From Candidatus Gastranaerophilales bacterium (GTDB lineage: Bacteria; Cyanobacteriota; Vampirovibrionia; Gastranaerophilales; Gastranaerophilaceae), in contig JAEEHV010000015.1 of NCBI GenBank assembly GCA_016280955.1, positions 1 to 64,000 of the forward strand: a DNA stretch of 64,000 nt, written 5' to 3'. Both the position numbers and the translations under genes were made by a program. How positions within the stretch are numbered: position 1 is the first letter of the stretch; each line of letters starts with the position of its first letter. Below the pieces are notes generated by a model. It was not told the DNA's origin. It worked only from the letters and a program-made list of their open reading frames with translations, and did no database searches. Shown one piece after another: positions 33,522 to 33,590 of the stretch.

Positions 33522-33590
33522 TCTTACATATATATAAAGTATATCTGCATTTGTGAATTTCAATATGTACTGCATTCGTTACAAAACTTA
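33522..33590 (-). promoter_or_regulatory. Modular promoter block, copy 1 (taagttttgtaacgaat-N11-tgaaatt-N11-atatactttatatatatgtaaga)
   Basis: Matches copies at 49032-49099, 53537-53597 and 44379-44416. Confidence 0.65.

What the first reader, a model, noticed from the sequence alone, without database searches (positions are those of the whole stretch)
33522..33590. Four-copy modular promoter with conserved box spacing upstream of unrelated uncharacterised genes
Seen directly: on the minus strand here, aagttttgtaacgaat-(11)-tgaaatt-(11)-atatactttatatatatgtaaga. At 49032-49099 (+): aagttttgtaacgaat-(11)-tgaaatt-(11)-aaatactttatatatacataaga. At 53537-53597 (+): gtaacaata-(11)-tgaaatt-(10)-atatacttttatatatatgtaaga, with the same overall distance. 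At 44379-44416 (+): agcaatt-(11)-tttaactttatatatatggaagg. Each copy precedes an uncharacterised gene (57-aa ORF 33132-33305; YD/MORN-like 49139; coiled-coil 53615; 50-aa 44445). Boxes spaced about one helical turn apart suggest an activator plus sigma site. Inference: these genes form a dispersed regulon, possibly a coordinated lineage-specific programme.
Basis: partly seen in the sequence, partly recalled or inferred. Interest (0 to 1): 0.8.

Follow-up and report, generated by a model that had tools for sequence, protein, structure and literature searches.

The report
Gut-cyanobacteria cousin's repurposed light-regulator promoters
A gut bacterium related to cyanobacteria but unable to photosynthesise carries about 45 copies of one distinctive promoter, whose control element matches the DNA site of RpaB, the cyanobacterial high-light regulator, and which sits before small proteins and small RNAs of unknown function; this gives a testable answer to what that regulator does in a cell without photosynthesis.

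Summary
The window lies in a Candidatus Gastranaerophilales genome (non-photosynthetic sister lineage of Cyanobacteria). The module is [direct repeat, 10-bp period]-[TGA or xGC + AATT]-13 nt-[ATACTTTATATATAYRTAAGA]. It occurs about 44 times in the genome (reversed-pattern control: 1), in all 57 other genomes of the genus (15-47 each, controls 0-2), weakly elsewhere in the order, and essentially not in the rest of the class. The upstream repeat matches the cyanobacterial RpaB operator HLR1 (KTTACAWW-N2-KTTACAWW): at most 1 mismatch at 41 of 86 sites versus about 0.6% in shuffles, at fixed distance, with its characteristic 2-nt gap. The genome encodes an RpaB that passes NCBI's cyanobacterial equivalog cut-off, and only two other OmpR-type regulators. 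Downstream genes are mostly short and uncharacterised, none with a Sec-like start (0 of 33), plus small RNA genes with terminators. One sRNA family, located by its own sequence, carries the promoter at all 29 loci with enough upstream DNA. Most likely this is an RpaB-type activator regulon rewired away from photosynthesis. Not shown: binding, transcription start, the sigma factor, co-expression, and what the products do.

The parts
33578..33595 (-). HLR1-like operator of copy 1 (reads AATGTTAAGTTTTGTAAC on -, GTTACAAAACTTAACATT on +)
   Evidence: 1 mismatch to KTTACAWWNNKTTACAWW
33522..33562 (-). promoter copy 1: TGAAATT box 33556-33562 and core ATACTTTATATATATGTAAGA 33522-33542
33132..33305 (-). 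57-aa gene under copy 1; another species has a 57-aa homologue (L122) with the same promoter class
33660..33733 (+). degenerate fifth copy, divergent from copy 1: operator 33660-33677 (0 mismatches to HLR1), core-like ATACATTATATATC 33720-33733, operator-core distance 7 nt longer than usual
33751..34227 (+). ORF behind the degenerate copy (MSNFTVNGVY...), no Pfam match
44359..44376 (+). operator of copy 4 (TTTACATTTCTTCACAAT)
   Evidence: 1 mismatch to HLR1
44379..44419 (+). promoter copy 4: AGCAATT box 44379-44385 and core TAACTTTATATATATGGAAGG 44399-44419
44445..44597 (+). 50-aa gene; a similar 50-aa protein lies behind the same promoter class in another species (L129)
   Evidence: sequences compared by eye
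48337..49032 (+). OmpR-family response regulator, one of three OmpR-type regulators in the genome; its 3' end overlaps the operator of copy 2. Not RpaB (206 bits, cut-off 330)
49026..49043 (+). HLR1-like operator of copy 2 (TGTGTAAAGTTTTGTAAC)
   Evidence: 1 mismatch to HLR1
49059..49099 (+). promoter copy 2: TGAAATT box 49059-49065, core ATACTTTATATATACATAAGA 49079-49099
49139..50044 (+). 301-aa protein, 24 homologues, predicted RHS/YD-like open beta sheet
53527..53541 (+). operator of copy 3, TGTTAAGAATGTAAC (one base shorter between halves)
   Evidence: read directly
53557..53597 (+). promoter copy 3: TGAAATT box and core ATACTTTTATATATATGTAAGA
53615..54289 (+). 224-aa all-helical protein with 21 homologues, long antiparallel helices, no informative fold match

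Best explanation
The boxes are one promoter type repeated about 45 times in the genome. An OmpR-family response regulator, most likely the genome's RpaB orthologue, binds a head-to-tail HLR1-like repeat about 50-75 bp upstream of the predicted transcription start. It recruits RNA polymerase to a conserved core (TGAAATT or xGCAATT at about -35; ATACTTTATATATAYRTAAGA ending near the start). The targets form a dispersed regulon of mostly short non-Sec proteins and terminator-ended small RNAs. SHOWN: the module, its copy number, spacing, two heritable box classes, conservation across the genus, the HLR1 match, the presence of RpaB, and sRNA-like units behind it. INFERRED: RpaB binding, activation rather than repression, the position of the start site, co-expression, and that the sigma factor is not simply housekeeping.
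For: 44 hits against 1 control in the genome; 57 of 57 other genus genomes with 15-47 hits and controls 0-2. HLR1 with its N2 gap: at most 1 mismatch at 47.7% of 86 sites versus 0.7% in shuffles, and far better than gaps of 0, 1, 3, 4 or 5 nt or the Pho/PhoP/CiaR/PmrA boxes. The operator starts 36-37 nt before AATT in 24 of 26 TGA sites; in xxC sites it lies mainly at -33 to -39, with minor placements about 10 bp nearer. RpaB orthologue at 355.6 bits, cut-off 330; only three OmpR-type regulators in the genome. sRNA family found by its own sequence in 57 of 58 genus genomes: at all 29 loci with enough upstream DNA the core is present (at most 2 mismatches, 26 exact), and an operator lies 53-54 nt before it at 28 of 29. 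Family members share box class in 23 of 23 pairs, 53% expected. HLR1 at -45 to -66 activates in cyanobacteria (PMC13421787).
Against: No expression, binding or start-site data. RpaB itself has no copy of this promoter in the stretch scanned, so autoregulation gives no support. Of 27 HLR1 matches with at most 1 mismatch in 339 kb, only 12 have the core within 90 nt, so the operator alone also occurs elsewhere. xxC-class operators occur in both orientations. Two other OmpR-type regulators could read similar repeats, and eight sigma factors are available.
Confidence: 0.65

Rival explanations
1. The same regulon, but the activator is one of the other two OmpR-type regulators, for example the one encoded at 48337-49032 beside copy 2, rather than RpaB.
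For: That gene's 3' end overlaps the operator of copy 2; both others belong to the same subfamily and have the RpaB model as their best or second-best match (203-206 bits). In cyanobacteria RpaA and RpaB compete for shared sites (PMC13421787).
Against: Neither passes the RpaB equivalog cut-off, and the operator is the specific HLR1 consensus with N2 spacing. Adjacency is unremarkable given about 45 copies.
Confidence: 0.22
2. The core is the promoter of an alternative sigma factor (SigF-like, FliA/WhiG or ECF), and the upstream repeat is an AT-rich UP element or minor modulator.
For: The core is far more conserved than usual promoters and does not fit TTGACA-N17-TATAAT (1 of 11 regulon upstream regions with at most 2 mismatches). 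Eight sigma factors are encoded, including FliA/WhiG above cut-off and two ECF types.
Against: An UP element would not give a direct repeat with specific letters, a 10-bp period and fixed placement. No published promoter of these sigma classes matches the core (from memory).
Confidence: 0.1
3. The copies are a dispersed repeat or the edge of a mobile element, not a regulatory module.
For: Several sites drive near-identical duplicated units (C27 and C28 copies).
Against: Only boxes are conserved; the 11- and 13-nt spacers and flanks are unrelated, and the boxes sit before unrelated genes with operator placement kept across species.
Confidence: 0.02

Closest known systems
Cyanobacterial RpaB / HLR1 regulon (NblS-RpaB)
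   Same: Operator consensus KTTACAWW-N2-KTTACAWW; RpaB equivalog in the genome; placement upstream of the core as in HLR1-activated promoters.
   Different: Host is non-photosynthetic; the targets seen are short uncharacterised proteins and sRNAs instead of photosynthesis genes; operator coupled to a strict ATACTTTATATATA core. RpaB control of the cyanobacterial sRNA PsrR1 is a parallel recalled from memory.
Streptococcal CiaR regulon with csRNAs
   Same: An OmpR-type direct repeat ahead of genes and several C-rich small RNAs (comparison from memory).
   Different: CiaR box TTTAAG-N5-TTTAAG has an 11-bp period and is not enriched here (0% of sites with at most 1 mismatch).
PhoB/PhoP/PmrA-type regulons
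   Same: Tandem repeats bound by OmpR-family regulators upstream of the core.
   Different: 11-bp period boxes: B. subtilis PhoP N5 form 0%, PmrA 0%, PHO box 0% of sites with at most 1 mismatch.

Membership tests
RpaB/HLR1 regulon | RpaB orthologue encoded | tested here: met
   NF045944 355.6 bits, cut-off 330; relatives in named Gastranaerophilales MAGs up to 92% identical
RpaB/HLR1 regulon | HLR1 operator KTTACAWW-N2-KTTACAWW | tested here: met
   at most 1 mismatch in 41 of 86 sites, at most 2 in 66 of 86; shuffles 0.6% and 4%; other gap lengths far worse
RpaB/HLR1 regulon | operator at an activating position (-45 to -66 from the start) | tested here: inconclusive
   operator spans about -36 to -17 from AATT; with the start near the end of the core this is about -74 to -49; start site not mapped
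RpaB/HLR1 regulon | RpaB binds and controls the promoters | not testable with these tools
   needs EMSA or DAP-seq
RpaB/HLR1 regulon | partner kinase NblS | not tested
   reported for Melainabacteria in PMC3787301 and PMC4040986, not searched here
CiaR / PhoP / PmrA / PHO-box regulons | direct repeat with 11-bp period | tested here: not met
canonical sigma-70 promoter | TTGACA-N16-18-TATAAT | tested here: not met
   1 of 11 regulon upstream regions with at most 2 mismatches; 37 of 156 other upstream regions
type III secretion substrate set | products exported by the T3SS | tested here: inconclusive
   Sec-like N-terminus in 0 of 33 and export gates present, but no copy of this promoter in the apparatus loci scanned

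The most novel reading that the evidence does not exclude
In Gastranaerophilales the ancestral cyanobacterial-type RpaB no longer serves photosynthesis but commands a lineage-specific programme of non-Sec proteins (including cell-wall-cutting enzymes without signal peptides) exported through a flagellar/type III-type apparatus, together with C-rich small RNAs that tune translation.
Probability: 0.2. Interest if true: 0.88.

Novelty: new variant of a known kind. Interest (0 to 1): 0.72.

Why it matters
Genome papers on Melainabacteria reported RpaA, RpaB and NblS, regulators otherwise tied to photosynthesis, and said only that they may have another function (PMC3787301, PMC4040986). This finding gives a concrete target list and operator, so the question becomes testable by binding and transcript mapping. 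It also groups dozens of uncharacterised genes and several new sRNA genes of common, hard-to-culture gut bacteria into one predicted regulon, and bears on what the ancestor of Cyanobacteria used RpaB for before or without oxygenic photosynthesis.

Tried and rejected
Chance similarity of AT-rich DNA: rejected by reversed-pattern controls and shuffles. Mobile repeat: rejected, because only boxes are conserved. Pho, CiaR, PmrA and B. subtilis PhoP boxes: rejected by spacing. T3SS co-regulation: no copy of this promoter at the flagellar/T3SS, sigma-factor or rpaB loci scanned, so the T3SS-substrate idea stays speculative. An mRNA target of the conserved sRNA by a 15-nt antisense match: no hit above control beyond the sRNA genes themselves. 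Known Rfam families at sRNA loci: none. Naming the organism by relatives of the 301-aa protein failed. Fold of the 224-aa protein: no match below E 0.02; the 145-aa regulon protein has almost no database relatives. Motif counts cannot be correlated with export-gate counts because nearly all genomes of the order carry export gates.

Full report
WHAT WAS CHECKED. The four copies are in the sequence as described. Two match the long pattern perfectly and shuffles of the window give none. The third has compensating one-base changes. The fourth is a weaker copy of a second subclass. A degenerate fifth copy points the other way beside the first. A scoring matrix built from all sites recovers three window copies and gives no hits in randomised windows.

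GENOME AND RELATIVES. The window is the start of contig C28 of a 2.78-Mb draft genome. RpaB relatives from public genomes place it in Candidatus Gastranaerophilales (92% identical in rumen and horse MAGs). The pattern AATT-N13-ATACTTTATATATANNTAAGA with at most 3 mismatches gives 44 hits against 1 for the reversed pattern. All 57 other genomes of the genus have 15-47 hits with controls of 0-2; other families of the order have 0-10; the rest of the class is at background.

ANATOMY. From 86 distinct sites in the own genome and relatives, the core letters at positions 17-30 after AATT are nearly invariant, and an upstream box is TGA or xGC before AATT. The spacers are free. Proteins of the same family, mostly from different species, keep the same box class in 23 of 23 pairs, against 53% expected. 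Upstream lies a direct repeat with a 10-bp period, usually starting 33-39 nt before AATT, with a few about 10 bp nearer or further, i.e. on the same helix face.

REGULATOR. The repeat matches the cyanobacterial HLR1 element (PMC9241938, PMC13421787). With the 2-nt gap of HLR1, 47.7% of sites have at most 1 mismatch against 0.7% for shuffles; other gaps and the Pho, PhoP, CiaR and PmrA boxes do far worse. The genome has three OmpR-type regulators. One passes the NCBIfam RpaB equivalog cut-off; the window's own regulator and the third do not. In cyanobacteria HLR1 upstream of the core activates and HLR1 over the start represses (PMC13421787). The placement here favours activation, but the start site is not mapped.

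UNBIASED TEST. A 31-nt sRNA element found behind some copies was searched by its own sequence. It occurs in 57 of 58 genomes of the genus, usually twice, and nowhere else searched. All 29 distinct loci with enough upstream DNA have the core (26 exact, none worse than 2 mismatches), and at 28 of 29 the best operator match lies 53-54 nt before it, always in the same orientation. This selection did not use the promoter.

WHAT IT CONTROLS. In the own genome about 33 sites have an ATG within 70 nt and several more are followed by an intrinsic terminator 50-125 nt away, i.e. sRNA genes, some pyrimidine-rich with repeated CCU. The proteins are short (median 145 aa), mostly without Pfam match. The exceptions are cell-wall hydrolases without signal peptide, EF-hand-like, MgtE_N-like and TPR proteins. 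None of 33 has a Sec or membrane-like start, against 55 of 263 other ORFs (crude hydrophobicity rule). The genome encodes flagellar export genes and a second divergent FHIPEP/FliF/FliH/FliP/FliR cluster, but the promoter was not found at the apparatus loci scanned. Export is therefore a possibility, not a result. The 301-aa window protein is predicted as an RHS/YD-like beta sheet, with no other domain recognised.

SIGMA FACTOR. Eight sigma-70-family factors are encoded. The regulon core does not fit the housekeeping spacing (small sample). Which factor is used is open.

JUDGEMENT. The regulatory module is close to certain. Control by an OmpR-family activator is likely. RpaB as that activator is the best single reading. 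The most valuable point is that it makes the role of RpaB in non-photosynthetic relatives of Cyanobacteria testable.

Noticed in passing
L021, L071, L138, L226-L255: New sRNA family with an invariant 31-nt C-rich stretch, genus-wide, usually two copies per genome, no Rfam match at the three loci tested.
   Followed up: partly
L014, L121, L136; L104 and L110 (tandem copies); L008, L009, L012; L022; L069; L117: Other short transcription units with strong terminators behind the same promoter; several are rich in CCU repeats that could pair with Shine-Dalgarno sequences.
   Followed up: partly
L086:519-19965, L087:55-1728, L084:9864-11957: Two different FlhA/SctV-type export gates. One (C77) passes the FlhA model; the other (C81, with FliF, FliH, FliP, FliR and a FliMN protein) falls below both the FlhA and SctV cut-offs.
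   Followed up: partly
L082:16039-17514 (C5): Protein with only the C-terminal half of FHIPEP behind an unrelated N-terminal part; nearly all genomes of the order have more than one FHIPEP match.
   Followed up: no
L059:1634-4339, L060:1515-2573, L065:1526-2467: Peptidoglycan-cutting enzymes behind the promoter without signal peptides (LysM + amidase + phage lysozyme; GH108; L065 lysozyme-like by eye, no Pfam match).
   Followed up: partly
window 1605-4991, 9660-11090, 37736-39313: Several large uncharacterised window proteins share short F-x-G/N-P-type N-terminal stretches (e.g. VSFRGKNPF), seen by eye only.
   Followed up: no
window 33522-33751: Two divergent promoters of the same type, one canonical and one degenerate, back to back between the 57-aa gene and the 33751 ORF.
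   Followed up: partly
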